Shown here piece by piece: positions 2,932 to 64,000 of a DNA stretch of 64,000 nucleotides (its first letter is position 1; the number at the start of each line of letters is the position of its first letter). The translations under genes were made by a program, and so were the position numbers. The notes beneath the pieces were generated by a model, which saw only the letters and a program-made list of their open reading frames with translations, did not search any database and was not told the origin of the DNA. Origin of the DNA: Arenicola marina (Eukaryota > Annelida > Polychaeta > Arenicolidae); NCBI GenBank assembly GCA_964019135.1, contig OZ025260.1:18470254-18534253 (forward strand), read 5' to 3'.

Positions 2932-3184
2932 CACTGGGCACACGACCAGATTTCAACGTCGTTTTCTGGTTGAATTCTCGTAAACTGGTTGATCAACAAG
3001 ATTTCGACGACATTTCAACGTCATATGACGACGAGCCGTCTTGAAAAAAACTGGTTGTACCCATGACTAGTTTATAACGTAGTATATTCGTCAATTTTCA
3101 ACTTGATTTGACCAGTAAGTCACAGCAACGCACTTGAGGATAAAACTGGTTGACCATGAAACGAGAATGTAACATATCGCACCT
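2932..3184. other. unassigned AT-rich spacer with repeated AACTGGTTG motifs
   Basis: Follows the break in the homeobox fragment. It contains several AACTGGTTG or ATTTCAACGTC repeats in both orientations, which suggests a decayed mobile element, but no clear terminal repeats were found. It ends at the 27-bp minisatellite. Confidence 0.3.
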
Positions 3185-10544: not shown

Positions 10545-10603
10545 ATTTGTTGATACTAATAGTTGGGTAAAACGATGCAGTCCTATGCAATGGGTGTTCA
10601 TTA
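10545..10603 (-). repeat. homeobox array unit remnant, distal part
   Basis: Matches the spacer of the array units (for example 41924-41982): GTTGATACTAATAGTTGGG, then AAACGATGCAGTCCTATGCA. It belongs with the remnant at 11690-12306. The two parts are in the right order and orientation for one unit, with the Rep-like insert between them and about 130 bp of unit sequence missing. Confidence 0.8.
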
Positions 10604-18001: not shown

Positions 18002-18039
18002 TTTCAATGATTTACATGGAACATGCACGTGCACATTGT

Positions 18040-20720: not shown

Positions 20721-20738
20721 AAGCGGACATTAGCCAGG

Positions 20739-38027: not shown

Positions 38028-38030
38028 TAA

Positions 38031-40196: not shown

Positions 40197-40684
40197 TAGT
40201 AACACATGAACTATTTGGGAATGGCAATTCAAAAATTAGAATATAAAGAATGGAGATGAATGAGTGAGATTATGAACATATTTCAAAGCAGTTAAGTCAG
40301 CAACATGACGTTGGAATTGGTTTGGCCGTGTGTTGCAATCATGATTTAAGTGAATTGAAGTCAATTCTGAAATGACTATGTGGACTGGAAGAGTCCAAGA
40401 ACCTAGAATTGCAGTCAGCTAAAGCTGCAAGTCGTGTTTAAAATACCAGTGTAAAAGAATCGATTGCATGAAAGCCTTGCCTGCAAGAGATCATTGACGT
40501 AGAACTGTAGTTGTTTAATGCTGCAAGTCATGTATAAAATACCGGCGCAAAAGAATTGTGGCAGTCTTGCCTGGCGGGTCAAGCAAAGTTACATTTCTTA
40601 ATAACTAGGACACCTTATCCACAAAAATGCAGCCAAGGATGTAATGGCGTTGCGATTAAAGAATTTATTTGATTTCAATGCCGT

Positions 40685-40690
40685 TTTATT
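40685..40690 (-). terminator. poly(A) signal of unit 1 (repeated in every unit)
   Basis: AATAAA on the minus strand about 66 bp past the stop codon, with a second AATAAA at 40664-40669. The same pair stands at the same distance after the other genes, for example 42718-42723 in unit 2. Each unit therefore looks able to end its own transcript. Confidence 0.65.
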
Positions 40691-40755
40691 GGTAAACAAA
40701 TCAACACGCAACAATGTCAGATAACATATGAGCGACGTCCCTTTTGATAATGTAC

Positions 40756-41493
40756 TCAGGGAAAATGTGACTTGACCCAAGTAACTACTCGTTGGTGACC
40801 ATGTCCTAGACGTAGCATTGAAGGCGCGGCATGGGTACAGAACTTGGGTTGAGTGTCGCTTGGTTCTGTTCCTGCCTGTATAGTTGGAGATGAGGATGAT
40901 AACGACAAGCGATTTCGTTTGAAATTCGACTGACTGTCGATTTCGATGGCCCGAAGTGAATATCCGATGTTTGAAGCCGACAGCTTGCCAGAATGTTGTA
41001 TTTTAGTGGAGTTGTCTCTTGAAGACAGCAGTTTGCTTTCCAGGGAAGAGTTGCTGGTGTGGTCCCTGGTGGGATCTCGCATACGCGTGTTAGCCAGCCA
41101 CTTTTTGATCTGGTTGACTGAGATATTCCCGTGTCGAGATATATAGTGGACTACATAATCGGAAGGATATGGGTGATAGCGGATGAGAGAGTACCACTGC
41201 TCCAACATGTCGACAGCTGTTCTACTGAGATAGCGGCTTGCTCTTTTGGAGCGCTTGGTGGAATTGTGAGATACCGCAGAAGGTGTAGCGTCCATTGATG
41301 ACAGCGTAACGTCACTCTGGTAGCCGCTGTCTACAGTTGGCCAAGTTCTCATTAAAGGCCTGACCAGCGATGAGTAGCAGCCATTCTGATGACTCTCTCC
41401 TCCACGGATCGTAGGTTTGATTTGTACCACTGGGCATAGAACGGTGGTCGGCATCGAGTTATCCTCCCAGGGACGGAAGAACTTTGTAGACAT
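40756..41493 (-). CDS. TALE-like homeobox gene, unit 1
   Basis: A 245-residue single-exon protein starting MSTKFFRPWEDN, with A at -3 of the ATG. Residues 80-84 (KRSKR) are a likely nuclear signal. The homeodomain spans about 82-144 with the three-residue loop extension and PYP (108-110), helix 1 L97 and W100, and recognition helix W132, N135 and R137 (positions 48, 51, 53). Position 49 is Leu in place of the usual Phe, position 50 is Ala as in Irx/Mkx, and position 5 is Ser rather than Arg. The rest is Ser/Thr-rich with no other domain. This ATG was chosen because all units keep 738 nt from it while the sequence upstream has stops and indels. Unit 1 is the most diverged (SLIRYHPYP, VNQIKKW, TKIQHSGK). 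Probably a DNA-binding regulator in the nucleus; the target is unknown. Confidence 0.8.
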   Translation of the reverse strand: MSTKFFRPWEDNSMPTTVLCPVVQIKPTIRGGESHQNGCYSSLVRPLMRTWPTVDSGYQSDVTLSSMDATPSAVSHNSTKRSKRASRYLSRTAVDMLEQWYSLIRYHPYPSDYVVHYISRHGNISVNQIKKWLANTRMRDPTRDHTSNSSLESKLLSSRDNSTKIQHSGKLSASNIGYSLRAIEIDSQSNFKRNRLSLSSSSPTIQAGTEPSDTQPKFCTHAAPSMLRLGHGHQRVVTWVKSHFP

Positions 41494-41739
41494 CTTTAGT
41501 TGATAAATAATTAGCCGAAACGATGACCCTTGATAACAGATCAAAGTTGATGATTGAGATTTGTTGTCCACATGCAAGTCAAGTGAACGCAAATCCAAAT
41601 GAACTTCTATTTTCTCATCAGGATGCACTTGTAGTGAAACGAAAATGCTTTTCACTAAAATTGCTCTTCCACCGAGTGAATTTGATTTTGTCTGAAGCGC
41701 AATAAATGTTGGAATGAAGCATTACGCCAAGCTGGACAA

Positions 41740-41747
41740 TTTATATA
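41740..41747 (-). promoter_or_regulatory. TATA box of unit 1 (repeated in every unit)
   Basis: TATATAAA on the minus strand, 247 bp before the ATG, followed by TTGTCCAGCTTGGCG. Equivalent sites start at 43773, 45807, 49872, 60026 and 62059 (TATATAAA, units 2, 3, 5, 10, 11) and at 47839, 51905, 53938, 55961 and 57994 (AATATAAA, units 4, 6, 7, 8, 9). The site of unit 12 is outside the window. The presumed leader is about 215 nt. Confidence 0.6.
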
Positions 41748-42788
41748 ACCCTGGGCTAGCCGATTTTGCTATCCAAGGACGCGTGTGGGTGATCTAGATA
41801 CAAAAGTGTCACGTTGAGCTGTGTCAACGGGTTGTAGATGCTCCGTAAAGTGTCAAAAGACACTAATTGCAATCAAGTCTTATTGCTGTCTTCGCACCTA
41901 TTTACTTAGTGTGCACTTCTTTTGTTGATACTAATAGTTGGGTAAAACGATGCAGTCCTATGCAATAGGTGTACATTAGACATGCAGAGAAAAACAATGT
42001 TGATGACTTTTTGATGGAAAAGGACTTCTATGTAAAAATCCCTCTATTTATTGAAAGCTACAATTTTCTGACAAATTAGATGTATCGACTTCAGCAACTT
42101 TAACATATTTTTCCTCGATTGTTGCTTATCGCACAAATTGACAATTAGACTGGTTTGCGAGTTGCTCGTTACACATATAATTTGTGGAAACGATAAATTT
42201 GAGGTATATTTATGTGCATAGTTAGTTAACACATGAGCTATTTGGGGATGGCCATTCAAAATTTAGAAATATAAACAGTGGAGATGAATAAGTGAGATTA
42301 TGAACATATTTGAAAGCAGTTAGGTCAGCAACATGACGTTGGAATTGGTTTGGCCGTGTGTTGCAATCATGATTTAAGTCAATTGAAGTCAATCAGATTC
42401 TGAAATGACTATGTGCACTGGAAGAGTGCAAGAACCCAGAACTGTAGTTAGCTAAAGCTGCAAGTCGTGTGTAAAATACCAGTGTAAAAGAATCGATTGC
42501 ATGAAAGCCTTGCATGCAAGAGATCATTGACGTAGAACTGTAGTTGTTTAATGCTGCAAGTCATGTGTAAAATACCGGCGTCATAGAATTGTGGCAGTCT
42601 TGCCTGGCGGCTCAGGCAAAGTTACATTTCTTAATAACTAGGGCATCTTATCCACAAAAATGCAGCCATGGACGTAATGGTGTTGCGATTAAAGAATTTA
42701 TTTGATTTCAATGCCGTTTTATTGGTAAACAAATCAACACGCAACAATGTCAGATAACATATGAGCGACGTCCCTTTTGATAATGTAC

Positions 42789-43526
42789 TCAGGGAAAATG
42801 CGACTTGACCCATGTAACTACTCGTTGGTGACCATGTCCTTGACGTAGCATTGAAGGCGCGGCATGGGTAAAAAACTTGTGTTGAGTGTTGCTTGGTTCT
42901 GTTCCTGCCTGTATGGTTGGAGATGAGGATGATAACGACAAGCGATTTCGTTTCAAATTCGACTGACTGTCGATTTCGTTGGCCCGAAGTGAATATCCGA
43001 GGTTTGAAACCGACCCCTTGCCAGGATGTTGTCTTTTTGTGGAGTTGTCTGTTGAAGACAGCAGTTTGCTTTCCGGGAGAGGGTTGCTGGTGTGGTCCCT
43101 GGTGGGATTTCGCATACGCGTGTTAGCCAGCCACTTTTTGAGCTGGTTGACTGAGATATTCCCGTGTCGAGATATGTAGTGGACTACATAATCGGAAGGA
43201 TATGGGTGATGGCGGTTGAGAGAGTACCACTGCTCCAACATGTCAACAGCTGTTCTACTGAGATAGCGGCTTGCTCTTTTGGAGCGCTTGGTGGAATTGT
43301 CAGATACCGCAGAAGGTGTAGCGTCCGTTGATGACAGCGTAACGTCACTCTGGTAGCCGCTGTCTACAGTTGGCCAAGTTCTCATTAAAGGCCTGACCAG
43401 CGATGAGTAGCAGCCATTCTGATGAATCTGTCCTCCACGGATCGTAGGTTTGATTTGTGCCACTGGGCATGGAACGGTGGTCGGCATCGAGTTATCCTCC
43501 CAGGGACGGAAGAACTTTGTAGACAT
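42789..43526 (-). CDS. TALE-like homeobox gene, unit 2
   Basis: An open 245-codon frame. Distinguishing changes: SDN in place of SHN before the homeodomain, VNQLKKW in helix 3, RNPTRD at its end and NPLPESK after it. PYP, W132, N135 and R137 are kept. Practically identical to unit 11. The frame upstream of the ATG stays open for another 54 codons but has no ATG. Confidence 0.8.
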   Translation of the reverse strand: MSTKFFRPWEDNSMPTTVPCPVAQIKPTIRGGQIHQNGCYSSLVRPLMRTWPTVDSGYQSDVTLSSTDATPSAVSDNSTKRSKRASRYLSRTAVDMLEQWYSLNRHHPYPSDYVVHYISRHGNISVNQLKKWLANTRMRNPTRDHTSNPLPESKLLSSTDNSTKRQHPGKGSVSNLGYSLRANEIDSQSNLKRNRLSLSSSSPTIQAGTEPSNTQHKFFTHAAPSMLRQGHGHQRVVTWVKSHFP

Positions 43527-44822
43527 CTTCAGTTGGTGAATAATTAGCCGAAGCGATGACACTTGATAACAGATCAAAGTTGATGATTGAGATTTGTTGT
43601 GCACGTGCAAGTCAAGTGAACGCGAATCCAAATGAACTTCTATTTTCTCATCAGAATGCACTTGTAGTGGAACGAAAATGCTTTTCACTAAAATTGTTCT
43701 TCCACCGAGTGAATTTGATTTTGTCTGAAGCGCAATAAATGTTGGAATGAAGCATTACGCCAAGCTGGACAATTTATATAACCCTGGGCTAGCCGATTTT
43801 GCTATCCAAGGACGCGTGTGTTTGATCTAGATACAGAAGTGTCACGTTGAGCTGTGCCAACGGGTTTTAGATGCTCAGTAAAGTGTCAAATAACACTAAT
43901 TGCAATCAAGTCTTATTGCTGTCTTCGCACCTGTTAACTTAATGTGCACTTCTTTTGTTGATACTAATAGTTGGGTAAAGCGATGCAGTCCTATGCAATG
44001 GGTGTACATTTAGACATGCAGAGAAAAACAATGTTGATGAATCTTTGATGGAAAAGGACTTCTATGTAAAAATCCCTCTATTTATTGAAAGTTACAATTT
44101 TCTGACAAATTAGGTGTATCGACTTCAGCAACTTTAACATATTTTTCCTCGATTGTTGCTTATCGCACAAATTGACAATTAGACTGGTTTGCGAGTTGCT
44201 CTTTACACATATAATTTGTGGAAACGATAAATTTGAGGTATATTTATGTGCATAGTTACTTAACACATGAACTATTTGGGGATTGCGATTCAAAATTTAG
44301 AAATATAAACAGTGGAGATGAATAAGTGAGATTATGAACATATTTGAAAGCAGTTAGGTCAGCAACATGACGTTGGAATTGGTTTGGCCGTGTGTTGCAA
44401 TCATGATTTAAGTGAATTGAAGTCAATCAGATTCTGAAATGACTATGTGCACTGGAAGAGTGCAAGAACCCAGAACTGTAGTTACCTAAAGCTGCTAGTC
44501 GTGTGTAAAATACCAGTGTAAAAGAATCGATTGCATGAAAGCCTTGCCTGCAAGAGATCATTGACGTAGAACTGTAGTTGTTTAATGCTGCAAGTCATAT
44601 GTAAAATACCGGCGTAAAAGAATTGTGGCAGTCTTGCCTGGCGGGTCAAGCAAAGTTACATTTCTTAATAACTAGGGCACCTTATCCACAAAAATGCAGC
44701 CATGGACGTAATGGCGTTGCGATTAAAGAATTTATTTGATTTCAATGCCGTTTTATTGGTAAACAAATCAACACGCGACAATGTCAGATAACATATGAGC
44801 GACGTCCCTTTTGATAATGTAC

Positions 44823-45560
44823 TCAGGGAAAATGCGACTTGACCCATGTAACTACTCGTTGGTGACCATGTCCTAGACGTAGCATTGAAGGCGCGGCATG
44901 GGTAAAAAACTTGTGTTGAGTGTCGCTTGGTTCTGTTCCTGCCTGTATGGTTGGAGAGGAGGATGATAACGACAAGCGATTTCGTTTGAAATTCGACTGA
45001 CTGTCGATTTCGTTGGCCCTAAGTGAATATCCGAAGTTTGGAGCCGACCCCTTGCCAGGATGTTGTCTTTTTGTGGAGTTGTCTGTTGAGGACAGCAGTT
45101 TGCTTTCCGGGGAAGAGTTGCTGGTGTGGTCCCTGGTGGGATCTTGCATACGCGTGTTAGCCAGCCACTTTTTGACCTGGTTGACTGAGATATTCCCGTC
45201 TCGAGATATGTAGTGGACTACATAATCGGAAGGATATGGGTGATGGCGGTTGAGAGAGTACCACTGCTCCAACATGTCGACAGCTGTTCTACTGAGATAG
45301 CGGCTTGCTCTTTTGGAGCGCTTGGTGGAATTGTGAGATACCACAGAGGGTGTAGCGTCCGTTGATGATTGCGTAACGTCACTCTGGTAGCCGCTGTCTA
45401 CAGTTGGCCAAGTTCTCATTAAAGGCGTGACCAGCGATGAGTACCAGCCATTCTGATGAATCCGTCCTCCGCGGATCATAGGTTTGATTTGTGCCACTGG
45501 GCATGGAACGGTGGTCGGCATCGAGTTATCCTCCCAGGGACGGAAGAACTTTGTAGACAT
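44823..45560 (-). CDS. TALE-like homeobox gene, unit 3
   Basis: An open 245-codon frame. Distinguishing changes: IKPMIRGGRIHQNGWY, LVTPL, DVTQSSTDATPSVV, Asp for His at residue 121 (RDGNIS) and Gln for Arg at residue 139 (homeodomain position 55, TRMQD), which sits at the DNA-facing end of the recognition helix. Residues W132, N135 and R137 are unchanged. A TAA in the leader, in frame, excludes translation starting further up. Nearly identical to units 5 and 12. Confidence 0.8.
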   Translation of the reverse strand: MSTKFFRPWEDNSMPTTVPCPVAQIKPMIRGGRIHQNGWYSSLVTPLMRTWPTVDSGYQSDVTQSSTDATPSVVSHNSTKRSKRASRYLSRTAVDMLEQWYSLNRHHPYPSDYVVHYISRDGNISVNQVKKWLANTRMQDPTRDHTSNSSPESKLLSSTDNSTKRQHPGKGSAPNFGYSLRANEIDSQSNFKRNRLSLSSSSPTIQAGTEPSDTQHKFFTHAAPSMLRLGHGHQRVVTWVKSHFP

Positions 45561-46854
45561 CTTCAGTTGGTGAATAATTAGCCGAAGCGATGACACTTGA
45601 TAACAGATCAAAGTTGATTATTGAGATTTGTTGTGCACGTGCAAGTCAAGTGAACGCAAATCCAAATGAACTTCTATTTTCTCATCCGAATGCACTTGTA
45701 GTGAAACGAAAATGCTTTTCACTAAAATTGCTCTTCCACCGAGTGAATTTGATTTTGTCTGAAGCGCAATAAATGTTGGAATGAAGCATTACGCCAAGCT
45801 GGACAATTTATATAACCCTGGGCTAGCCGATTTTGCTATCCAAGGACGCGTGTGGGTGATCTAGATTCAGAAGTGTCACGTTGAGCTGTGTCAACGGGTT
45901 GTAGATGCTCAGTAAAGTGTCAAAAGACACTAATTGCAATCAAGTCTTATTGCTGTCTTCGCACCTGTTAACTTAATGTGCACTTCTTTTGTTGGTACTA
46001 ATAGTTGGGTCAAACGATGCAGTCCTATGCAATGGGTGTACATTAGACATGCAGAGAAAAACAATGCTGATGACTTGTTGATGGAAAAGGACTTCTATGT
46101 AAAGATCCCTCTATTTATTGAAAGCTACAATTTTCTGACAAATTAGGTGTATCGACTTCAGCAACTTTAACATATTTTTCCTCGATTGTTGCTTATCGCA
46201 CAAATTGACAATTAGACTGGTTGCGAGTTGCTCTTTACACATATAATTTGTGGAAACGATAAATATGAGGTCTATATATGTGCATAGTTAGATAACACAT
46301 GAACTATTTGGGGATGGCCATTCAAAATTTAGAAATATAAACAGTGGAGATGAATAAGTGAGATTATGAACATATTTGAAAGCAGTTAGGTCAGCAACAT
46401 GACGTTGGAATTGGTTTGGCCGTGTGTTGCAATCATGATTTAAGTGAATTGAAGTCAATCAGATTCTGAAATGACTATGTGCACTGGAAGAGTGCAAGAA
46501 CCCAGAACTGTAGTTACCTAAAGCTGCTAGTCGTGTGTAAAATACCAGTGTAAAAGAATTGATTGCATGAAAGCCTTGCCTGCAAGAGATCATTGACGTA
46601 AAACTGTAGTTGTTTAATGCTGCAAGTCATGTGTAAAATACCGGCGTCAAAGAATTGTGGCGGTCTTGCCTGGCGGGTCAAGCAAAGTTACATTTCTTAA
46701 TAACTAGGGCACCTTATCCACAAAAATGCAGCCATGGACGTAATGGCGTTGCGATTAAAGAATATATTTGATTTCAATGCCGTTTTATTGGTAAACAAAT
46801 CAACACGCAACAATGTCAGATAACATATGAGCGACGTCCCTTTTGATAATGTAC

Positions 46855-47592
46855 TCAGGGAAAATGCGACTTGACCCATGTAACTACTCGTTGGTGACCA
46901 TGTCCTTGACGTTGCATTGAAGGCGCTGCATGGGTAAAGAACTTGTGTTGAGTGTCGCTTGGTTCTGTTCCTGCCTGTATGGTTGGAGATGAGGATGATA
47001 ACGACAAGCGATTTCGTTTCAAATTCGACTGACTGTCGATTTCGTTGGCCCGAAGTGAATATCCGAGGTTTGAAGCCGACCCCTTGCCAGGATGTTGTCT
47101 TTTTGTGGAGTTGTCTGTTGAAGACAGCAGTTTGCTTTCCGGGGAAGAGTTGCTGGTGTGGTCCCTGGTGGGATCTCGCATACGCGTGTTAGCCAGCCAC
47201 TTTTTGACCTGGTTGACTGAGATATTCCCGTGTCGAGATATGTAGTGGACTACATAATCGGAAGGATATGGGTGACGGCGGTTGAGAGAGTACCACTGCT
47301 CCAACATGTCAACAGCTGTTCTACTGAGATAGCGGCTTGCTCTTTTGGAGCGCTTGGTGGAATTGTGAGATACCGCAGAAGGTGTAGCGTCCGTTGATGA
47401 CAGCGTAACGTCACTCTGGTAGCCGCTGTCTACAGTTGGCCAAGTTCTTATTAAAGGCCTGACCAGCGATGAGTAGCAGCCATTCTGATGAATCTGTCCT
47501 CCACGGATCGTAGGTTTGATTTGTGCCACTGGGCATGGAACGGTGGTCGGCATCGAGTTATCCTCCCAGGGACGGAAGAACTTTGTAGACAT
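46855..47592 (-). CDS. TALE-like homeobox gene, unit 4
   Basis: An open 245-codon frame. Distinguishing changes: LIRTW, Arg for His at residue 106 in the loop (NRRHPYP), SNLKRN and SMQRQGHG near the end. Helix 3 is the array consensus (VNQVKKWLANTRMRD). The TATA element is the AATATAAA variant, and a stop lies in the leader, so the ATG start is firm. Confidence 0.8.
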   Translation of the reverse strand: MSTKFFRPWEDNSMPTTVPCPVAQIKPTIRGGQIHQNGCYSSLVRPLIRTWPTVDSGYQSDVTLSSTDATPSAVSHNSTKRSKRASRYLSRTAVDMLEQWYSLNRRHPYPSDYVVHYISRHGNISVNQVKKWLANTRMRDPTRDHTSNSSPESKLLSSTDNSTKRQHPGKGSASNLGYSLRANEIDSQSNLKRNRLSLSSSSPTIQAGTEPSDTQHKFFTHAAPSMQRQGHGHQRVVTWVKSHFP

Positions 47593-48887
47593 CTTCAGTT
47601 GGTGAATAATTAGCCGAAGCGATGACACTTGATAACAGATCAAAGTTGATGATTGAGATTTGTTGTGCACGTGCAAGTCAAGTGAACGCTAATCCAAATG
47701 AACTTCTATTTTCTCATCAGAATGCACTTGTAGTGGAACGAAAATGCTTTCCACTAAAATTGTTCTTCCACCGAGCAAATTTGATTTTGTCTGAAGCGCA
47801 ATAAATGTTGGAATGAAGCATTACGCCAAGCTGGACAATTTATATTACCCTGGGCTAGCCGATTTTGCTATCCAAGGACGCGTGTGGGTGATCTAGATAC
47901 AGAAGTGTCACGTTGAGCTGTGCCAACGGGGTTTAGATGCTCAGCAAAGTGTCAAAAGACACTAATTGCAATCAAGTCTTATTGCTGTCTGGCACCTGTT
48001 AACTTAGTGTGCACTTCTTTTGTTGATACTAATAGTTGGGTAAAGCGATGCAGTCCTATGCAATGGGTGTACATTTAGACATGCAGAGAAAAACAATGTT
48101 TATGACTCTTTGATGGAAAAGGACTTCTATGTAAAAATCCCTCTATTTATTGAAAGGTACAATTTTCTGACAAATTAGGTGTATCGACTTCAGCAAATTT
48201 AACATATTTTTCCTCGATTGTTGCTTATCGCACTAATTGCCAATTAGACTGGTTTGCGAGTTGCTCTTTACACATATAATTTGTGGAAACGATAAATATG
48301 AGGTATATTTATGTGCATAGTTAGTTAACACATGAACTATTTGGGGATGGCCATTCAAAATTTAGAAATATAAACAGTGGAGATGGATAAGTGAGATTAT
48401 GAACATCTTTGAAAGCAGTTAGGTCAGCAACATGACGTTGGAATTGGTTTGGCCGTGTGTTGCAATCATGATTTAAGTGAATTGAAGTCAATCAGATTCT
48501 GAAATGACTATGTGCACTGGATGAGTGCAAGAACCCAGAACTGTAGTTACCTAAAGCTGCTAGTCGTATGTAAAATACCAGTGTAAAAGAATCGATTGCA
48601 TGAAAGCCTTGCCTGCAAGAGATCATTGACGTAGAACTGTAGTTGTTTAATGCTGCAAGTCATATGTAAAATACTGGCGTAAAAGAATTGTGGCAGTCTT
48701 GCCTGGCGGGTCAAGCAAAGTTACATTTCTTAATAACTAGGGCACCTTATCCACAAAAATGCAGCCATGGACGTAATGGCGTTGCGATTAAAGAATTTAT
48801 TTGATTTCAATGCCGTTTTATTGGTAAACAAATCAACACGCGACAATGTCAGATAACATATGAGCGACGTCCCTTTTGATAATGTAC

Positions 48888-49625
48888 TCAGGGAAAATGC
48901 GACTTGACCCATGTAACTACTCGTTGGTGACCATGTCCTAGACGTAGCATTGAAGGCGCGGCATGGGTAAAAAACTTGTGTTGAGTGTCGCTTGGTTCTG
49001 TTCCTGCCTGTATGGTTGGAGATGAGGATGATAACGACAAGCGATTTCGTTTGAAATTCGACTGACTGTCGATTTCGTTGGCCCGAAGTGAATATCCGAA
49101 GTTTGGAGCCGACCCCTTGCCAGGATGTTGTCTTTTTGTGGAGTTGTCTGTTGAGGACAGCAGTTTGCTTTCCGGGGAAGAGTTGCTGGTGTGGTCCCTG
49201 GTGGGATCTTGCATACGCGTGTTAGCCAGCCACTTTTTGACCTGGTTGACTGAGATATTCCCGTCTCGAGATATGTAGTGGACTACATAATCGGAAGGAT
49301 ATGGGTGATGGCGGTTGAGAGAGTACCACTGCTCCAACATGTCGACAGCTGTTCTACTGAGATAGCGGCTTGCTCTTTTGGAGCGCTTGGTGGAATTGTG
49401 AGATACCACAGAGGGTGTAGCGTCCGTTGATGACAGCGTAACGTCACTCTGGTAGCCGCTGTCTACAGTTGGCCAAGTTCTCATTAAAGGCGTGACCAGC
49501 GATGAGTACCAGCCATTCTGATGAATCCGTCCTCCGCGGATCGTAGGTTTGATTTGTGCCACTGGGCATGGAACGGTGGTCGGCATCGAGTTATCCTCCC
49601 AGGGACGGAAGAACTTTGTAGACAT
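48888..49625 (-). CDS. TALE-like homeobox gene, unit 5
   Basis: An open 245-codon frame, nearly a copy of unit 3: it shares WYSSLVTPL, TPSVV, RDGNIS and TRMQD but has KPTIRGG and LSSTDA. The spacer above it also matches that above unit 3 (compare 49999-50211 with 45934-46146), which indicates a two-unit duplication of about 4065 bp. Confidence 0.8.
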   Translation of the reverse strand: MSTKFFRPWEDNSMPTTVPCPVAQIKPTIRGGRIHQNGWYSSLVTPLMRTWPTVDSGYQSDVTLSSTDATPSVVSHNSTKRSKRASRYLSRTAVDMLEQWYSLNRHHPYPSDYVVHYISRDGNISVNQVKKWLANTRMQDPTRDHTSNSSPESKLLSSTDNSTKRQHPGKGSAPNFGYSLRANEIDSQSNFKRNRLSLSSSSPTIQAGTEPSDTQHKFFTHAAPSMLRLGHGHQRVVTWVKSHFP

Positions 49626-54985: not shown

Positions 54986-55713
54986 TCAGGGAAAATACGA
55001 CTTGACCCATGTAACTACTCGTTGGTGACCATGTCCTTGACGTAGCATTGAAGGCGCTGCATGGGTAAAGAACTTGTGTTGAGTGTCGCTTGGTTCTGTT
55101 CCTGCCTGTATGGTTGGAGATGAGGATGATAACGACAAGCGATTTTGTTTGAAATTCGACTGACTGTCGATTTCGTTGGCCCGAAGTGAATATCCGAGGT
55201 TTGGAGCCGACTCCTTGCCAGGATGTTGTCTTTTTGTGGAGTTGTCTGTTGAAGACAGCAGTTTGCTTTCCGGGGAAGAGTTGCTGGTGTGGTCCCTGGT
55301 GGGATCTCGCATACGCGTGTTAGCCAGCCACTTTTTGACCTGGTTGACTAAGATATTCCCGTGTCGAGATATGTAGTGGACTACATAATCGGAAGGATAT
55401 GGGTGATGGCGGTTGAGAGAGTACCACTGCTCCAACATGTCGACAGCTGTTCTACTGAGATTCTTTTGGAGCGCTTGGTGGAATTGTGAGATACCGCAGA
55501 GGGTGTAGCGTCCGTTGATGACAGTGTAACGTCACTCTGGTAGCCGCTGTCTACAGTTGGCCAAGTTTTCATTAAAGGCCTGACCAACGATGAGTAGCAG
55601 CCATTCTGATGAATCTGTCCTCCACGAATCGTAGGTTTGATTTGTGCCACTGGGCATGGAACGGTGGTCGGCATCGAGTTATCCTCCCAGGGACGGAAGA
55701 ACTTTGTAGACAT
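54986..55713 (-). pseudogene. TALE-like homeobox gene, unit 8 (10-bp deletion)
   Basis: The locus is 728 nt instead of 738. Ten bases (AGCGGCTTGC in the other units, plus strand) are missing at 55461/55462. This shifts the frame just before helix 1, so the ATG-initiated protein loses the homeodomain and stops near 55381. The homeodomain part is still open from an internal Met (MLEQWYS, 55438), but that product would lack the arm and half of helix 1. The rest matches units 7 and 9. Also seen: LVNQVKKW and SNFKQN. Confidence 0.85.
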
Positions 55714-57008
55714 CTTCAGTTGGTGAATAATTAGCCGAAGCGATGACACTTGATAATAGATCAAAGTTGATGATTGAGATTTGTTGTGCCCGTGCAAGTC
55801 AAGTGAACCGCAAATACAAATGAACTTCTATTTTCTCATCAGAATGCACTTGTAGTGGAACGAAAATGCTTTCCACTAAAATTGCTCTTCCACCGAGTGA
55901 ATTTGATTTTGTCTGAAGCGCAATAAATGTTGGAATGAAGCATTACGCCAAGCTGGACAATTTATATTACCCTGGACTAGCCGATTTTGCTATCCAAGGA
56001 CGTGTGTGGGTGACCTAGATACAAAAGTGTCACGTTGAGCTGTATCAACGGGTTTTAGATGCTCAGTAAAGTGTCAAAAGACACTAATTGCAATCAAGTC
56101 TTATTGCTGTCTGGCACCTGTTAACTTAGTGTGCACTTCTTTTGCTGATACTAATAGTTGGGTAAAGCGATGCAGTCCTATGCAATGGGTGTACATTTAG
56201 ACATGCAGAGAAAAACAATGTTTATGACTCTTTGATGGAAAAGGACTTCTATGTAAAAATCCCTCTATTTATTGAAAGTTACAATTTTCTGACAAATTAG
56301 GTGTATCGACTTCAGCAACTTTAACATATTTTTCCTCGATTGTTGCTTATCGCACAAATTGACAATTAGACTGGTTTGCGAGTTGCTCTTTACACATATA
56401 ATTTCTGGAAACGATATATTTCAGGTATATTTATGTGCATAGTTAGTTAACACATGAACTATTTGGGGATGGCCATTCAACATTTAGAAATATAAACAGT
56501 GGAGATGAATAAGTGAGATTATGAACATATTTGAAAGCAGTTAGGTCAGCAACATGACGTTGGAATTGGTTTGGCCGTGTGTTGCAATCATGATTTAAGT
56601 GAATTGAAGTCAATCAGATTCTGAAATGACTGTGTGCACTGGAAAAGTGCAAGAACCCAGAACTGTAGTTAGCTAAAGCTGCTAGTCGTGTGTAAAATAC
56701 CAGTGTAAAAGAATCGATTGCATGAAAGCCTTGCCTGCAAGAGATCATTGACGTAGAACTGTAGTTGTTTAATGCTGCAAGTCATGTGTAAAATACTGGC
56801 GTAAAAGAATTGTGGCAGTCTTGCCTGGCGGGTCAAGCAAGTTACATTTCTTAATAACTAGGGCACCTTATCCACAAAAATGCAGCCATGGACGTAATGG
56901 CGTTGCGATTAAAGAATTTATTTGATTTCAATGCCGTTTTATTGGTAAACAAATCCACACGCAACAATGTCAGATAACATATGAGCGACGTCCCTTTTGA
57001 TAATGTAC

Positions 57009-57746
57009 TCAGGGAAAATACGACTTGACCCATGTAACTACTCGTTGGTGACCATGTCCTTGACGTAGCATTGAAGGCGCTGCATGGGTAAAGAACTTGT
57101 GTTGAGTGTCGCTTGGTTCTGTTCCTGCCTGTATGGTTGGAGATGAGGATGATAACGACAAGCGATTTCGTTTGAAATTCGACTGACTGTCGATTTCGTT
57201 GGCCCGAAGTGAATATCCGAGGTTTGGAGCCGACTCCTTGCCAGGATGTTGTCTTTTTGTGGAGTTGTCTGTTGAAGACAGCAGTTTGCTTTCCGGGGAA
57301 GAGTTGCTGGTGTGGTCCCTGGTGGGATCTCGCATACGCGTGTTAGCCAGCCACTTTTTGACCTGGTTGACTAAGATATTCCCGTGTCGAGATATGTAGT
57401 GGACTACATAATCGGAAGGATATGGGTGATGGCGGTTGAGAGAGTACCACTGCTCCAACATGTCGACAGCTGTTCTACTGAGATAGCGGCTTGCTCTTTT
57501 GGAGCGCTTGGTGGAATTGTGAGATACCGCAGAGGGTGTAGCGTCCGTTGATGACAGTGTAACGTCACTCTGGTAGCCGCTGTCTACAGTTGGCCAAGTT
57601 CTCATTAAAGGCCTGACCAGCGATGAGTAGCAGCCATTCTGATGAATCCGTCCTCCGCGGATCGTAGGTTTGATTTGTGCCACTGGGCATGGAACGGTGG
57701 TCGGCATCGAGTTATCCTCCCAGGGACGGAAGAACTTTGTAGACAT
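57009..57746 (-). CDS. TALE-like homeobox gene, unit 9
   Basis: An open 245-codon frame of the unit 7-10 subgroup (GKESAPNLGY, KSYFP). Leu replaces Ser at residue 125 (GNILVNQ, just before helix 3), as in units 8 and 10. It lies next to the broken unit 8 and is its closest intact relative. Confidence 0.8.
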   Translation of the reverse strand: MSTKFFRPWEDNSMPTTVPCPVAQIKPTIRGGRIHQNGCYSSLVRPLMRTWPTVDSGYQSDVTLSSTDATPSAVSHNSTKRSKRASRYLSRTAVDMLEQWYSLNRHHPYPSDYVVHYISRHGNILVNQVKKWLANTRMRDPTRDHTSNSSPESKLLSSTDNSTKRQHPGKESAPNLGYSLRANEIDSQSNFKRNRLSLSSSSPTIQAGTEPSDTQHKFFTHAAPSMLRQGHGHQRVVTWVKSYFP

Positions 57747-59041
57747 CTTCAGTTGGTGAATAATTAGCCGAAGCGATGACACTTGATAATAGATCAAAGT
57801 TGATGATTGAGATTTGTTGTGCCCGTGCAAGTCAAGTGAACCGCAAATACAAATGAACTTCTATTTTCTCATCAGAATGCACTTGTAGTGGAACGAAAAT
57901 GCTTTCCACTAAAATTGCTCTTCCACCGAGTGAATTTGATTTTGTCTGAAGCGCAATAAATGTTGGAATGAAGCATTACGCCAAGCTGGACAATTTATAT
58001 TACCCTGGACTAGCCGATTTTGCTATCCAAGGACGTGTGTGGGTGACCTAGATACAAAAGTGTCACGTTGAGCTGTGTCAACGGGTTTTAGATGCTCAGT
58101 AAAGTGTCAAAAGACACTAATTGCAATCAAGTCTTATTGCTGTCTGGCACCTGTTAACTTAGTGTGCACTTCTTTTGCTGATACTAATAGTTGGGTAAAG
58201 CGATGCAGTCTTATGCAATGGGTGTACATTTAGACATGCAGAGAAAAACAATGTTTATGACTCTTTGATGGAAAAGGACTTCTATGTAAAAATCCCTCTA
58301 TTTATTGAAAGTTACAATTTTCTGACAAATTAGGTGTATCGACTTCAGCAACTTTAACATATTTTTCCTCGATTGTTGCTTATCGCACAAATTGACAATT
58401 AGACTGGTTTGCGAGTTGCTCTTTACACATATAATTTGTGGAAACGATATATTTCAGGTATATTTATGTGCATAGTTAGTTAACACATGAACTATTTGGG
58501 GATGGCCATTCAAAATTTAGAAATATAAACAGTGGAGATGAATAAGTGAGATTATGAACATATTTGAAAGCAGTTAGGTCAGCAACATGACGTTGGAATT
58601 GGTTTGGCCGTGTGTTGCAATCATGATTTAAGTCAATTGAAGTCAATCAGATTCTGAAATGACTATGTGGACTGGAAAAGTGCAAGAACCCAGAACTGTA
58701 GTTAGCTAAAGCTGCTAGTCGTGTGTAAAATACCAGTGTAAAAGAATCGATTGCATGAAAGCCTTGCCTGCAAGAGATCATTGACGTAGAACTGTAGTTG
58801 TTTAATGCTGCAAGTCATGTGTAAAATACTGGCGTAAAAGAATTGTGGCAGTCTTGCCTGGCGGGTCAAGCAAGTTACATTTCTTAATAACTAGGGCACC
58901 TTATCCACAAAAATGCAGCCATGGACGTAATGGCGTTGCGATTAAAGAATTTATTTGATTTAAATGCCGTTTTATTGGTAAACAAATCCACACGCAACAA
59001 TGTCAGATAACATATGAGCGACGTCCCTTTTGATAATGTAC

Positions 59042-59779
59042 TCAGGGAAAATACGACTTGACCCATGTAACTACTCGTTGGTGACCATGTCCTTGACGTA
59101 GCATTGAAGGCGCTGCATGGGTAAAGAACTTGTGTTGAGTGTCGCTTGGTTCTGTTCCTGCCTGTATGGTTGGAGATGAGGATGATAACGACAAGCGATT
59201 TCGTTTGAAATTCGACTGACTGTCGATTTCGTTGGCCCGAAGTGAATATCCGAGGTTTGGAGCCGACTCCTTGCCAGGATGTTGTCTTTTTGTGGAGTTG
59301 TCTGTTGAAGACAGCAGTTTGCTTTCCGGGGAAGAGTTGCTGGTGTGGTCCCTGGTGGGATCTCGCATACGCGTGTTAGCCAGCCACTTTTTGACCTGGT
59401 TGACTAAGATATTCCCGTGTCGAGATATGTAGCGGACTACATAATCGGAAGGATATGGGTGATGGCGGTTGAGAGAGTACCACTGCTCCAACATGTCGAC
59501 AGCTGTTCTACTGAGATAGCGGCTTGCTCTTTTGGAGCGCTTGGTGGAATTGTGAGATACCGCAGAGGGTGTAGCGTCCGTTGATGACAGTGTAACGTCA
59601 CTCTGGTAGCCGCTGTCTACAGTTGGCCAAGTTCTCATTAAAGGCCTGACCAACGATGAGTAGCAGCCATTCTGATGAATCTGTCCTCCACGAATCGTAG
59701 GTTTGATTTGTGCCACTGGGCATGGAACGGTGGTCGGCATCGAGTTATCCTCCCAGGGACGGAAGAACTTTGTAGACAT
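59042..59779 (-). CDS. TALE-like homeobox gene, unit 10
   Basis: An open 245-codon frame with GNILVNQ and GKESAPNLGY like unit 9, and Arg for His at residue 116 (VVRYISR). Its leader and the spacer beyond about 59850 instead match those of unit 1, not unit 9. Unit 10 is therefore a recombinant and marks the junction of the 18.3-kb repeat. Confidence 0.8.
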   Translation of the reverse strand: MSTKFFRPWEDNSMPTTVPCPVAQIKPTIRGGQIHQNGCYSSLVRPLMRTWPTVDSGYQSDVTLSSTDATPSAVSHNSTKRSKRASRYLSRTAVDMLEQWYSLNRHHPYPSDYVVRYISRHGNILVNQVKKWLANTRMRDPTRDHTSNSSPESKLLSSTDNSTKRQHPGKESAPNLGYSLRANEIDSQSNFKRNRLSLSSSSPTIQAGTEPSDTQHKFFTHAAPSMLRQGHGHQRVVTWVKSYFP

Positions 59780-61074
59780 TTTCAGTTGGTGAATAATTAG
59801 CCGAAGCGATGACACTTGATAATAGATCAAAGTTGATGATTGAGATTTGTTGTGCACGTGCAAGTCAAGTGAACGCAAATCCAAATGAACTTCTATTTTC
59901 TCATCAGAATGCACTTGTAGTGAAACGAAAATGCTTTCCACTAAAATTGCTCTTCCACCGAGTGAATTTGATTTTGTCTGAAGCCCAACAAATGTTGGAA
60001 TGAAGCATTACGCCAAGCTGGACAATTTATATAACCCTGGGCTAGCCGATTTTGCTATCCAAGGACGCGTGTGGGTGATCTAGATACAAAAGTGTCACGT
60101 TGAGCTGTGTCAACGGGTTGTAGATGCTCCGTAAAGTGTCAAAAGACACTAATTGCAATCAAGTCTTATTGCTGTCTTCGCACCTATTTACTTAGTGTGC
60201 ACTTCTTTTGTTGATACTAATAGTTGGGTAAAACGATGCAGTCCTATGCAATAGGTGTACATTAGACATGCAGAGAAAAACAATGTTGATGACTTTTTGA
60301 TGGAAAAGGACTTCTATGTAAAAATCCCTCTATTTATTGAAAGCTACAATTTTCTGACAAATTAGATGTATCGACTTCAGCAACTTTAACATATTTTTCC
60401 TCGATTGTTGCTTATCGCACAAATTGACAATTAGACTGGTTTGCGAGTTGCTCGTTACACATATAATTTGTGGAAACGATAAATTTGAGGTATATTTATG
60501 TGCATAGTTAGTTAACACATGAGCTATTTGGGGATGGCCATTCAAAATTTAGAAATATAAACAGTGGAGATGAATAAGTGAGATTATGAACATATTTGAA
60601 AGCAGTTAGGTCAGCAACATGACGTTGGAATTGGTTTGGCCGTGTGTTGCAATCATGATTTAAGTCAATTGAAGTCAATCAGATTCTGAAATGACTATGT
60701 GCACTGGAAGAGTGCAAGAACCCAGAACTGTAGTTAGCTAAAGCTGCAAGTCGTGTGTAAAATACCAGTGTAAAAGAATCGATTGCATGAAAGCCTTGCA
60801 TGCAAGAGATCATTGACGTAGAACTGTAGTTGTTTAATGCTGCAAGTCATGTGTAAAATACCGGCGTCATAGAATTGTGGCAGTCTTGCCTGGCGGCTCA
60901 GGCAAAGTTACATTTCTTAATAACTAGGGCATCTTATCCACAAAAATGCAGCCATGGACGTAATGGTGTTGCGATTAAAGAATTTATTTGATTTTAATGC
61001 CGTTTTATTGGTAAACAAATCAACACGCAACAATGTCAGATAACATATGAGCGACGTCCCTTTTGATAATGTAC

Positions 61075-61812
61075 TCAGGGAAAATGCGACTTGACCCATG
61101 TAACTACTCGTTGGTGACCATGTCCTTGACGTAGCATTGAAGGCGCGGCATGGGTAAAAAACTTGTGTTGAGTGTTGCTTGGTTCTGTTCCTGCCTGTAT
61201 GGTTGGAGATGAGGATGATAACGACAAGCGATTTCGTTTCAAATTCGACTGACTGTCGATTTCGTTGGCCCGAAGTGAATATCCGAGGTTTGAAACCGAC
61301 CCCTTGCCAGGATGTTGTCTTTTTGTGGAGTTGTCTGTTGAAGACAGCAGTTTGCTTTCCGGGAGAGGGTTGCTGGTGTGGTCCCTGGTGGGATTTCGCA
61401 TACGCGTGTTAGCCAGCCACTTTTTGAGCTGGTTGACTGAGATATTCCCGTGTCGAGATATGTAGTGGACTACATAATCGGAAGGATATGGGTGATGGCG
61501 GTTGAGAGAGTACCACTGCTCCAACATGTCAACAGCTGTTCTACTGAGATAGCGGCTTGCTCTTTTGGAGCGCTTGGTGGAATTGTCAGATACCGCAGAA
61601 GGTGTAGCGTCCGTTGATGACAGCGTAACGTCACTCTGGTAGCCGCTGTCTACAGTTGGCCAAGTTCTCATTAAAGGCCTGACCAGCGATGAGTAGCAGC
61701 CATTCTGATGAATCTGTCCTCCACGGATCGTAGGTTTGATTTGTGCCACTGGGCATGGAACGGTGGTCGGCATCGAGTTATCCTCCCAGGGACGGAAGAA
61801 CTTTGTAGACAT
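61075..61812 (-). CDS. TALE-like homeobox gene, unit 11
   Basis: An open 245-codon frame with the same protein as unit 2 (SDN, VNQLKKW, RNPTRD, NPLPESK). The DNA matches unit 2 at a fixed offset of 18,286 bp, with at most a few differences noted by eye (for example T for C at 60994). Confidence 0.8.
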   Translation of the reverse strand: MSTKFFRPWEDNSMPTTVPCPVAQIKPTIRGGQIHQNGCYSSLVRPLMRTWPTVDSGYQSDVTLSSTDATPSAVSDNSTKRSKRASRYLSRTAVDMLEQWYSLNRHHPYPSDYVVHYISRHGNISVNQLKKWLANTRMRNPTRDHTSNPLPESKLLSSTDNSTKRQHPGKGSVSNLGYSLRANEIDSQSNLKRNRLSLSSSSPTIQAGTEPSNTQHKFFTHAAPSMLRQGHGHQRVVTWVKSHFP

Positions 61813-63108
61813 CTTCAGTTGGTGAATAATTAGCCGAAGCGATGACACTTGATAACAGATCAAAGTTGATGATTGAGATTTGTTGTGCACGTGCAAGTCA
61901 AGTGAACGCGAATCCAAATGAACTTCTATTTTCTCATCAGAATGCACTTGTAGTGGAACGAAAATGCTTTTCACTAAAATTGTTCTTCCACCGAGTGAAT
62001 TTGATTTTGTCTGAAGCGCAATAAATGTTGGAATGAAGCATTACGCCAAGCTGGACAATTTATATAACCCTGGGCTAGCCGATTTTGCTATCCAAGGACG
62101 CGTGTGTTTGATCTAGATACAGAAGTGTCACGTTGAGCTGTGCCAACGGGTTTTAGATGCTCAGTAAAGTGTCAAATAACACTAATTGCAATCAAGTCTT
62201 ATTGCTGTCTTCGCACCTGTTAACTTAATGTGCACTTCTTTTGTTGATACTAATAGTTGGGTAAAGCGATGCAGTCCTATGCAATGGGTGTACATTTAGA
62301 CATGCAGAGAAAAACAATGTTGATGAATCTTTGATGGAAAAGGACTTCTATGTAAAAATCCCTCTATTTATTGAAAGTTACAATTTTCTGACAAATTAGG
62401 TGTATCGACTTCAGCAACTTTAACATATTTTTCCTCGATTGTTGCTTATCGCACAAATTGACAATTAGACTGGTTTGCGAGTTGCTCTTTACACATATAA
62501 TTTGTGGAAACGATAAATTTGAGGTATATTTATGTGCATAGTTACTTAACACATGAACTATTTGGGGATTGCGATTCAAAATTTAGAAATATAAACAGTG
62601 GAGATGAATAAGTGAGATTATGAACATATTTGAAAGCAGTTAGGTCAGCAACATGACGTTGGAATTGGTTTGGCCGTGTGTTGCAATCATGATTTAAGTG
62701 AATTGAAGTCAATCAGATTCTGAAATGACTATGTGCACTGGAAGAGTGCAAGAACCCAGAACTGTAGTTACCTAAAGCTGCTAGTCGTGTGTAAAATACC
62801 AGTGTAAAAGAATCGATTGCATGAAAGCCTTGCCTGCAAGAGATCATTGACGTAGAACTGTAGTTGTTTAATGCTGCAAGTCATATGTAAAATACCGGCG
62901 TAAAAGAATTGTGGCAGTCTTGCCTGGCGGGTCAAGCAAAGTTACATTTCTTAATAACTAGGGCACCTTATCCACAAAAATGCAGCCATGGACGTAATGG
63001 CGTTGCGATTAAAGAATTTATTTGATTTCAATGCCGTTTTATTGGTAAACAAATCAACACGCGACAATGTCAGATAACATATGAGCGACGTCCCTTTTGA
63101 TAATGTAC

Positions 63109-63846
63109 TCAGGGAAAATGCGACTTGACCCATGTAACTACTCGTTGGTGACCATGTCCTAGACGTAGCATTGAAGGCGCGGCATGGGTAAAAAACTTGT
63201 GTTGAGTGTCGCTTGGTTCTGTTCCTGCCTGTATGGTTGGAGAGGAGGATGATAACGACAAGCGATTTCGTTTGAAATTCGACTGACTGTCGATTTCGTT
63301 GGCCCTAAGTGAATATCCGAAGTTTGGAGCCGACCCCTTGCCAGGATGTTGTCTTTTTGTGGAGTTGTCTGTTGAGGACAGCAGTTTGCTTTCCGGGGAA
63401 GAGTTGCTGGTGTGGTCCCTGGTGGGATCTTGCATACGCGTGTTAGCCAGCCACTTTTTGACCTGGTTGACTGAGATATTCCCGTCTCGAGATATGTAGT
63501 GGACTACATAATCGGAAGGATATGGGTGATGGCGGTTGAGAGAGTACCACTGCTCCAACATGTCGACAGCTGTTCTACTGAGATAGCGGCTTGCTCTTTT
63601 GGAGCGCTTGGTGGAATTGTGAGATACCACAGAGGGTGTAGCGTCCGTTGATGATTGCGTAACGTCACTCTGGTAGCCGCTGTCTACAGTTGGCCAAGTT
63701 CTCATTAAAGGCGTGACCAGCGATGAGTACCAGCCATTCTGATGAATCCGTCCTCCGCGGATCATAGGTTTGATTTGTGCCACTGGGCATGGAACGGTGG
63801 TCGGCATCGAGTTATCCTCCCAGGGACGGAAGAACTTTGTAGACAT
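63109..63846 (-). CDS. TALE-like homeobox gene, unit 12
   Basis: An open 245-codon frame with the same protein as unit 3 (KPMIRGGRIHQNGWY, RDGNIS, TRMQD) at the 18,286-bp offset. Its leader runs to the window end and its promoter lies outside. Confidence 0.8.
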   Translation of the reverse strand: MSTKFFRPWEDNSMPTTVPCPVAQIKPMIRGGRIHQNGWYSSLVTPLMRTWPTVDSGYQSDVTQSSTDATPSVVSHNSTKRSKRASRYLSRTAVDMLEQWYSLNRHHPYPSDYVVHYISRDGNISVNQVKKWLANTRMQDPTRDHTSNSSPESKLLSSTDNSTKRQHPGKGSAPNFGYSLRANEIDSQSNFKRNRLSLSSSSPTIQAGTEPSDTQHKFFTHAAPSMLRLGHGHQRVVTWVKSHFP

Positions 63847-64000
63847 CTTCAGTTGGTGAATAATTAGCCGAAGCGATGACACTTGATAACAGATCAAAGT
63901 TGATTATTGAGATTTGTTGTGCACGTGCAAGTCAAGTGAACGCAAATCCAAATGAACTTCTATTTTCTCATCCGAATGCACTTGTAGTGAAACGAAAATG

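What the first reader, a model, noticed from the sequence alone, without database searches (positions are those of the whole stretch)
40197..64000. Tandem array of at least 12 divergent TALE-like homeobox genes
Seen: 12 head-to-tail units of about 2033 bp, each with a 738-nt uninterrupted homeobox frame, a TATA-type element and AATAAA signals. Known: TALE homeodomains carry a three-residue loop extension with PYP, and animal TALE genes (Irx, Meis, Pbx, Pknox, Tgif, Mkx) are usually few per genome and intron-bearing. Inferred: a lineage-specific, single-exon homeobox family amplified like rDNA or histone repeats. I know of no named amphioxus gene that fits it.
Basis: partly seen in the sequence, partly recalled or inferred. 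Interest (0 to 1): 0.9.

Follow-up and report, generated by a model that had tools for sequence, protein, structure and literature searches.

The report
Tandem array of TALE homeobox genes
An animal genome carries at least twelve near-identical, back-to-back copies of an unusual single-exon regulatory (homeobox) gene, each with an apparent on-switch and end signal, organised much like the DUX4 repeat of mammals; whether the copies are used is not known.

Summary
From 40203 to the window end lie 11 complete units and one cut unit (complete units 2023-2034 bp, head to tail). Each has a minus-strand 738-nt frame for a 245-aa protein. Ten of 12 frames are open; unit 6 has a stop at codon 208, unit 8 a 10-bp frameshift in the homeobox. 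A TATA element lies 252-254 nt upstream in 11 of 11 testable units; a poly(A) signal follows the stop place in 12 of 12. The protein has a TALE homeodomain (Pfam Homeobox_KN 2.5e-9; nearest solved structures extradenticle/Pbx) that fits no canonical TALE family. The array evolves by unequal exchange: unit 10 is a unit-9/unit-1 hybrid followed by copies of units 2 and 3. Variation between copies looks neutral (20 synonymous, 46 missense, 1 stop; p=0.68), with marginal evidence that frame-breaking changes are disfavoured (p=0.04). Relics lie about 28-37 kb away. Best reading: a DUX4/D4Z4-like macrosatellite of single-exon TALE genes. Close precedents exist: tandem near-identical TALE/SPILE genes in limpet and chiton.

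The parts
40203..42229 (-). Unit 1 (U1), array edge; CDS 40756-41493, intact, the most diverged copy
   Evidence: 95.1% identical to U2; private changes 5 synonymous, 18 nonsynonymous
42230..44263 (-). Unit 2; CDS 42789-43526, intact 245 aa
   Evidence: Homeobox_KN residues 100-139, E 2.5e-9
44264..46295 (-). Unit 3; CDS 44823-45560, intact; R55Q-type homeodomain
46296..48328 (-). Unit 4; CDS 46855-47592, intact
48329..50360 (-). Unit 5; CDS 48888-49625, intact; R55Q-type homeodomain
50361..52394 (-). Unit 6; CDS 50920-51657 with nonsense codon at 208; mosaic of U4-like left part and U7-like right part (0 differences from U7 from about column 800 on)
52395..54427 (-). Unit 7; CDS 52953-53690, intact
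54428..56450 (-). Unit 8; start codon at 55713; 10-bp deletion in the homeobox shifts the frame (pseudogene)
56451..58483 (-). Unit 9; CDS 57009-57746, intact
58484..60515 (-). Unit 10; CDS 59042-59779, intact; hybrid: left part mostly U9-type, all U1-type after column 1457
60516..62549 (-). Unit 11; CDS 61075-61812, intact; 1 difference from U2 over 2033 bp
62550..64000 (-). Unit 12, cut by the window end; CDS 63109-63846, intact; identical to U3 over 1451 bp
43773..43780 (-). TATA element of U2, 254 nt upstream of the ATG; same place in the other testable units
   Evidence: sequence; 11 of 11 testable units
42697..42723 (-). Two poly(A) signals of U2, 66 and 87 nt after the stop
42419..42589 (+). 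Imperfect 75-nt direct repeat (77%, spacing 96) in the spacer; function unknown
11691..12307 (-). Relic of the array spacer spanning a unit junction (unit end + unit start), about 94% identical, no coding part
10546..10602 (-). Further piece of the same relic, parted from it by a 1.09-kb stretch with a helicase-like frame that stands in place of 131 bp of unit
2855..2932 (+). Homeobox fragment, opposite strand, next to a 200-N assembly gap (BLAST match 2869-2930, extended by eye); reads NRYLSRAAVDMLEQWYSLNRHQPYP then breaks off

Best explanation
The feature is a macrosatellite-like array of single-coding-exon TALE-class homeobox genes. Each ~2.03-kb unit looks like a self-contained transcription unit on the minus strand: TATA element, leader of about 220 nt (inferred from the TATA position), 738-nt frame, poly(A) signal, spacer. 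Copies are kept alike by unequal crossing over or conversion (shown by hybrid units and block duplication). The product is most likely a short sequence-specific DNA-binding protein: a TALE homeodomain in the middle with arms predicted at low confidence, probably disordered. By analogy to DUX4/Dux and spiralian SPILE genes, it is probably made from many copies at once in a narrow window such as germ line or early embryo. That last step is inference only.
For: 12 units, 10 open frames. Homeodomain class: Pfam Homeobox_KN 37.3 bits against a cut-off of 24; 24 distinct PDB sequences by profile at E 0.1, all homeodomains and 23 of them TALE-type (the class of MATalpha2 is recalled), best extradenticle at 9.4e-6. 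AlphaFold2 helices 91-103, 112-122, 126-136 at block pLDDT about 61-83; Foldseek's first 24 rows are TALE homeodomains (Exd, MATalpha2, PKNOX1, TGIF, Meis, Pbx; probability 1.00, best E 6.2e-3). W48, N51 and R53 kept in 11 of 11 copies examined (U8 left out; numbering recalled). TATA and poly(A) signals at fixed places. ORF longer than in any of 1000 shuffles. Unequal exchange: where U9 and U1 differ, U10 carries 70 U9-type and 31 U1-type alleles and no third type, all U1-type after column 1457; U11 matches U2 (1 difference), U12 matches U3 (0 differences). No close relative in the viral or prokaryote collections. Frame-breaking changes fewer than expected: 2 against 6.7, Poisson p=0.037. Pooled pairwise pN/pS 0.62.
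Against: Variation between copies shows no clear purifying selection: 20 synonymous, 46 missense, 1 nonsense in 11 of 12 copies (U8 left out), p=0.68; pairwise pN/pS from 0.10 to 1.69; without U1 15/28/1, p=0.31. Coding and spacer columns vary equally (65/738 and 117/1297, p=0.94). Amino-acid changes are not clearly depleted in the homeodomain (10 of 47, in 63 of 245 residues). Whole-model confidence is low (mean pLDDT 44, pTM 0.26); no Foldseek hit reaches E 0.001, and non-TALE homeodomains appear from row 25. The p=0.037 test rests on small counts and mixes two sets of copies. No transcript, expression or binding data were available.
Confidence: 0.58

Rival explanations
1. Decaying macrosatellite: a former TALE gene amplified as a non-functional satellite. 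Frames are open because amplification is recent, not because they are used.
For: Neutral-like variation, equal variability of frame and spacer, 2 of 12 copies broken, degenerate edge copy U1 (5 synonymous, 18 nonsynonymous private changes) and truncated relics.
Against: 10 of 12 full frames, TATA and poly(A) signals kept in place; frame-breaking changes fewer than expected (p=0.037). Low constraint between copies is also expected for redundant copies of a live gene.
Confidence: 0.3
2. The window is from a spiralian (for example a mollusc) and the array is an instance of the already described tandem SPILE A/C-clade TALE genes.
For: Limpet: eight nearly identical homeodomains in tandem; chiton: seven nearly identical on one scaffold (PMC8524836). 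The helix-3 string QVKK, in 8 of 11 copies examined (QLKK in two, QIKK in one), is the string printed for the mollusc TALE clade VI (PMC5322547 passages).
Against: GC of 43% outside the array is closer to amphioxus (about 41%, recalled) than to limpet (about 33%, recalled). CD20-like genes lie beside it; I recall that family as mainly chordate, not tested. QVKK is a four-residue match in a conserved helix. The published PADRE domain could not be compared (no letters available).
Confidence: 0.12
3. A mobile element or virus-borne gene that happens to encode a homeodomain.
For: Array fragments occur elsewhere in the window, one beside a helicase-like frame.
Against: No inverted repeats of 14 nt or more in unit 2; beside the homeobox frame only three ORFs of 60-67 aa in unit 2; no relative in viral contigs or genome contigs by a search that finds close relatives only. 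The larger relic spans a unit junction, so it is old array rather than a transposed unit.
Confidence: 0.04
4. The copy number is inflated by assembly: U10-U12 repeat U1-U3 because two haplotypes or overlapping reads were joined inside the array.
For: U11-U12 match U2-U3 with 1 difference in about 3.48 kb, and U10 is a U9/U1 hybrid; the window has a 200-N gap at 2655-2854.
Against: U1-U9 and the left part of U10 remain as a distinct array; U6 is a second, different mosaic, so exchange happens anyway. A real unequal crossover leaves the same mark.
Confidence: 0.25

Closest known systems
DUX4 in the D4Z4 macrosatellite (and mouse Dux arrays)
   Same: Kilobase unit in tandem, one uninterrupted homeobox frame per unit, variable array size, related sequences elsewhere in the genome (passages of PMC3004920).
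   Different: DUX4 has two homeodomains (PRD class; class named in a PMC6118893 passage) and a 3.3-kb unit; here one TALE homeodomain, 2.03-kb unit. DUX4 is said to be conserved by selection in that paper; selection is not shown here.
SPILE / lophotrochozoan-specific TALE genes, A/C clade (TALE VI, XV, XVII)
   Same: TALE class, too divergent for canonical families, recently and lineage-specifically duplicated with near-identical homeodomains in tandem (PMC8524836; PMC6118893; PMC5322547 passages). QVKK string shared with clade VI.
   Different: Described for spiralians in these papers; unit structure, promoter periodicity and exon count of those clusters were not seen. PADRE domain not comparable here.
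Canonical TALE families (Pbx/exd, Meis, Pknox, Tgif, Irx, Mkx)
   Same: Three-residue loop with PYP, W48, N51, R53.
   Different: Only 14-17 of 57-59 residues identical to each; no PBC or Meis companion domain at E 0.1 in Pfam; no supported grouping; L49 instead of F49.
Eutherian ETCHbox genes, including the large rabbit LEUTX array
   Same: Divergent, lineage-specific homeobox genes multiplied in tandem, with gene conversion between TPRX genes (abstract and passages of PMC8208926).
   Different: PRD class, mammals; no regular 2-kb unit mentioned in what was read.
Actinernus ANTP-group-c expansion
   Same: 24 of 28 genes by tandem duplication (passages of PMC10598428).
   Different: ANTP class, spread over four chromosomes.

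Membership tests
TALE-class homeodomain | Homeodomain recognised by family model | tested here: met
   Homeobox_KN PF05920 37.3 bits, cut-off 24; PDB TALE chains lead
TALE-class homeodomain | Three-residue loop extension with PYP between helices 1 and 2 | tested here: met
   Ungapped alignment to extradenticle through PYPS (that extradenticle carries the extension is recalled); helices 91-103 and 112-122 with HPYPS between them
TALE-class homeodomain | DNA-contact residues W48, N51, R53, R55 | tested here: inconclusive
   W48, N51, R53 in 11 of 11 copies examined (U8 left out); R55 in 8 of 11, Q in U3, U5, U12 (numbering recalled)
Canonical TALE family (Pbx, Meis, Pknox, Tgif, Irx, Mkx) | Supported grouping with one family | tested here: not met
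   0 of 11 inner branches starred; 14-17 of 57-59 identities (references typed from recall except extradenticle); a 14-row tree is weak evidence
Canonical TALE family (Pbx, Meis, Pknox, Tgif, Irx, Mkx) | Companion domain (PBC, Meis/hth; recalled) | tested here: not met
   Only homeodomain models match at E 0.1
SPILE (spiralian TALE) | Found in a spiralian | not testable with these tools
   Organism not identified; no genome held
SPILE (spiralian TALE) | PADRE region upstream of the homeodomain (A/C clade) | not testable with these tools
   Described in words only; no letters to compare
SPILE (spiralian TALE) | Expression in early development | not testable with these tools
   No RNA data
DUX4/D4Z4-like gene macrosatellite (works like) | Kilobase tandem unit, each with an uninterrupted homeobox frame | tested here: met
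   12 units, 10 open frames
DUX4/D4Z4-like gene macrosatellite (works like) | Homogenisation by exchange | tested here: met
   Hybrid U10 and mosaic U6, U11 matching U2, U12 matching U3; an assembly join could mimic the U10-U12 part
DUX4/D4Z4-like gene macrosatellite (works like) | Frame conserved by selection | tested here: inconclusive
   Variation neutral-like, p=0.68; frame-breaking changes 2 against 6.7, p=0.037
DUX family proper | Two PRD-class homeodomains | tested here: not met
   One KN-type homeodomain
Mobile element | Terminal repeats or own transposition enzyme | tested here: not met
   No inverted repeats of 14 nt or more in unit 2; beside the homeobox frame only ORFs of 60, 67 and 60 aa in unit 2, not searched against families

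The most novel reading that the evidence does not exclude
A chordate-lineage TALE homeobox gene has independently evolved the DUX4 design: a dose-tuned macrosatellite of single-exon homeobox genes fired together in the germ line or at genome activation. The array would hold at least two homeodomain subtypes (R55 and Q55, the latter with H121D) that bind different sites, with array length as a heritable expression dial.
Probability: 0.18. Interest if true: 0.85.

Novelty: new variant of a known kind. Interest (0 to 1): 0.55.

Why it matters
Divergent, multiplied homeobox genes have turned up repeatedly as early-embryo regulators: Dux and Obox in mammals (listing of PMC11202083) and SPILE genes in molluscs (PMC8524836). 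An independent TALE array with a regular 2-kb unit that includes promoter and terminator signals would allow a direct test of whether tandem amplification is a general route to early-embryo transcription factors, and whether copy number acts as dose. It may also show how an assembly can hide a multi-copy homeobox gene as one orphan (inference).

Tried and rejected
HNF or non-TALE homeodomain: rejected. Virus or bacterial origin: 4 viral and 30 prokaryote stretches matched a peptide pattern, none encodes a relative; with a single protein as query this finds close relatives only. RNA gene: no Rfam match at gathering score and no tRNA in the window. Histone- or rDNA-like co-array: no rRNA; beside the homeobox frame only three ORFs of 60-67 aa in unit 2, so no core histone frame. 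Terminal inverted repeats: none of 14 nt or more in unit 2. Phylogenetic placement: 14-row tree unresolved, 0 of 11 inner branches starred; it puts the rows beside MATalpha2, itself flagged by the program as a long branch. The bacterial promoter scan says nothing about an animal gene. Selection test: neutral not rejected; leaving out U1 afterwards was a post hoc step and did not change the answer. Relic homeobox fragment as outgroup: 3 synonymous and 2 nonsynonymous changes from the array majority in 62 bp, too few.

Literature: ten searches of the open PMC library were made. Six of them joined amphioxus, cephalochordate or Branchiostoma with homeobox and duplication, array or class terms. Among the papers listed (listings were capped, for example 20 of 37 and 20 of 27) I saw none whose title or abstract start tells of a tandem TALE homeobox array in amphioxus. 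Subscription papers are mostly not in the library. The amphioxus homeobox survey of Takatori et al. 2008 was not held. I recall, without any call, that it lists an unassigned amphioxus TALE gene named Atale; whether that is this gene is open. The word search for it (10 of 13 papers listed) showed only papers on other subjects. Seen of papers: listings and abstract starts for most; passages of PMC6118893, PMC8208926, PMC3004920, PMC8524836, PMC5322547, PMC10598428; part 1 of 2 of section 11 of PMC6118893 and of section 5 of PMC8524836. No paper was read whole.


Full report
Observation. The region 40203-64000 holds 12 head-to-tail units (11 complete) with spacings of 2023-2034 bp. Each carries, on the minus strand, a 738-nt frame for a 245-residue protein. 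Ten of 12 frames are open; U6 ends early at codon 208 and U8 has a 10-bp deletion in the homeobox. An ORF this long does not occur in 1000 dinucleotide shuffles of unit 2 (maximum 233 aa). A TATA element lies 252-254 nt before the ATG in 11 of 11 testable units, and a poly(A) signal follows the stop place in 12 of 12. Beside the homeobox frame, unit 2 has only three ORFs of 60-67 aa. There is no intron in the coding part; an intron in the leader is not excluded.

Protein. Pfam finds Homeobox_KN (residues 100-139, 2.5e-9) and, below cut-off, Homeodomain. By sequence the nearest solved structures are extradenticle and Pbx, then TGIF, MATalpha2, PKNOX and Meis. An AlphaFold2 model from the window's own ten open copies shows three main helices (91-103, 112-122, 126-136) at moderate confidence and low confidence elsewhere (mean pLDDT 44, pTM 0.26). 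Foldseek ranks TALE homeodomains in the first 24 rows, with other homeodomains among the later ones, and E-values no better than 6e-3. The helix-3 string is VNQ(V/L/I)KKWLANTRM(R/Q): W48, N51 and R53 are kept in 11 of 11 copies examined (U8 left out), F49 is L, and R55 is Q in U3, U5 and U12 (homeodomain numbering recalled). Identity to canonical animal TALE families is 14-17 of 57-59 residues, and 22 of 58 to the plant BEL1; Antp, the only non-TALE row, gave 15 of 49 in a poor gapped alignment (references recalled except extradenticle). A tree resolves nothing (0 of 11 inner branches starred). It is a TALE orphan on this evidence.

How the array evolves. Of the sites where U9 and U1 differ, U10 has 70 U9-type and 31 U1-type alleles and no third type. 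A few U1-type sites lie among the U9-type ones on the left (columns 31, 182, 187, 1200, 1208 and from 1374), and all are U1-type after column 1457. U11 then matches U2 (1 difference in 2033 bp) and U12 matches U3 (0 in 1451 bp). U6 is a mosaic of 12 U4-type and 35 U7-type sites, with no difference from U7 from about column 800 on. This is the signature of unequal exchange or conversion. For the U10-U12 block, an assembly join between haplotypes would look the same. The edge copy U1 is the most diverged, as expected where homogenisation is weakest.

Selection. In 11 of 12 copies (U8 left out) there are 20 synonymous, 46 missense and 1 nonsense unique changes; the neutral expectation for the synonymous share is 27%, observed 30% (p=0.68). 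Pairwise pN/pS runs from 0.10 to 1.69, pooled 0.62. Without U1 the counts are 15/28/1 (p=0.31). Coding and spacer columns vary alike in the 11 complete units (8.8% and 9.0%, p=0.94). Against this, only 2 frame-breaking changes are seen where 6.7 are expected from the spacer indel rate (U1-U11) and the nonsense expectation (all but U8) (Poisson p=0.037), a marginal result from small counts. So the copies are not shown to be under selection; redundant copies of a live gene and recent copies of a dead one would both look like this.

Surroundings. A spacer relic spanning a unit junction lies at 11691-12307 (about 94% identical) with a further piece at 10546-10602. Between them, 1.09 kb with a helicase-like frame stands in place of 131 bp of unit. 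A homeobox fragment on the other strand abuts a 200-N gap at 2855-2932. The array thus had other members or was longer. Between relic and array lie a segmental duplication (15.1-20.9 against 34.2-39.4 kb) with two CD20-like gene copies (one stretch over Pfam's cut-off, 29.6 against 27.9 bits, the other under it at 25.9) and a LINE.

Organism. No genome is held for the window. GC is 43% outside the array, with 14 G/C homopolymers of 9 or more against 4 of A/T, and CD20-like genes are present. This fits amphioxus better than a limpet on recalled genome GC values, but it is not proof. It matters because nearly identical clustered TALE genes are already printed for limpet (eight, in tandem) and chiton (seven, on one scaffold) (PMC8524836), and the QVKK string, in 8 of 11 copies examined, is the one printed for the mollusc TALE clade VI (PMC5322547 passages).

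Mechanism. Best reading: a DUX4/D4Z4-like macrosatellite of single-exon TALE genes, each unit with its own promoter and terminator signals, homogenised by exchange, encoding a short DNA-binding regulator. Shown: unit structure, class of homeodomain, exchange. Inferred: transcription, protein function, timing in germ line or early embryo, dose effect. The strongest rival is a decaying, unused macrosatellite.

Novelty. Lineage-specific tandem homeobox expansions are a known kind (DUX, ETCHbox/LEUTX, SPILE, Actinernus ANTP-group-c). A regular promoter-bearing TALE macrosatellite, if outside spiralians, is a new variant. I saw no print record of it in the capped listings of the six searches that joined amphioxus, cephalochordate or Branchiostoma with homeobox terms; the key amphioxus survey was not held.

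Noticed in passing
window 32741-33991 (-): ORF of 416 aa upstream of the LINE's endonuclease/reverse transcriptase ORF, probably its ORF1, whose C-terminal part matches Pfam UPF0029 at 28.8 bits, just over the cut-off of 27; an odd domain for a retrotransposon ORF1.
   Followed up: partly
window 28846-32130 (-): LINE second ORF with endonuclease and reverse transcriptase domains (29950-32130), split from what looks like its C-terminal part (28846-29844).
   Followed up: no
window 10603-11690: Stretch with a P-loop, helicase-like frame (DUF5906 28.9 bits, cut-off 27.6; no PDB match at E 0.1) inside a relic of the array spacer; possibly a captured replication-protein fragment.
   Followed up: partly
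window 15135-20870 and 34208-39417: Collinear segmental duplication (pieces 71-89% identical) carrying two CD20-like gene copies.
   Followed up: partly
window 17568-18002: Seven copies of a 62-bp tandem repeat, 100% identical, near one CD20-like copy and not listed at the other; very recent expansion or assembly effect.
   Followed up: no
window 2655-2854: 200-N assembly gap directly beside a truncated homeobox fragment; more array copies may be missing there.
   Followed up: partly
window 621-2294 and 3185-3996: Large minisatellites of 36-bp and 27-bp units near the window start.
   Followed up: no
U3, U5, U12 (44823-45560, 48888-49625, 63109-63846): Linked changes H121D and R139Q (homeodomain position 55), a possible second DNA-binding subtype.
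   Followed up: partly
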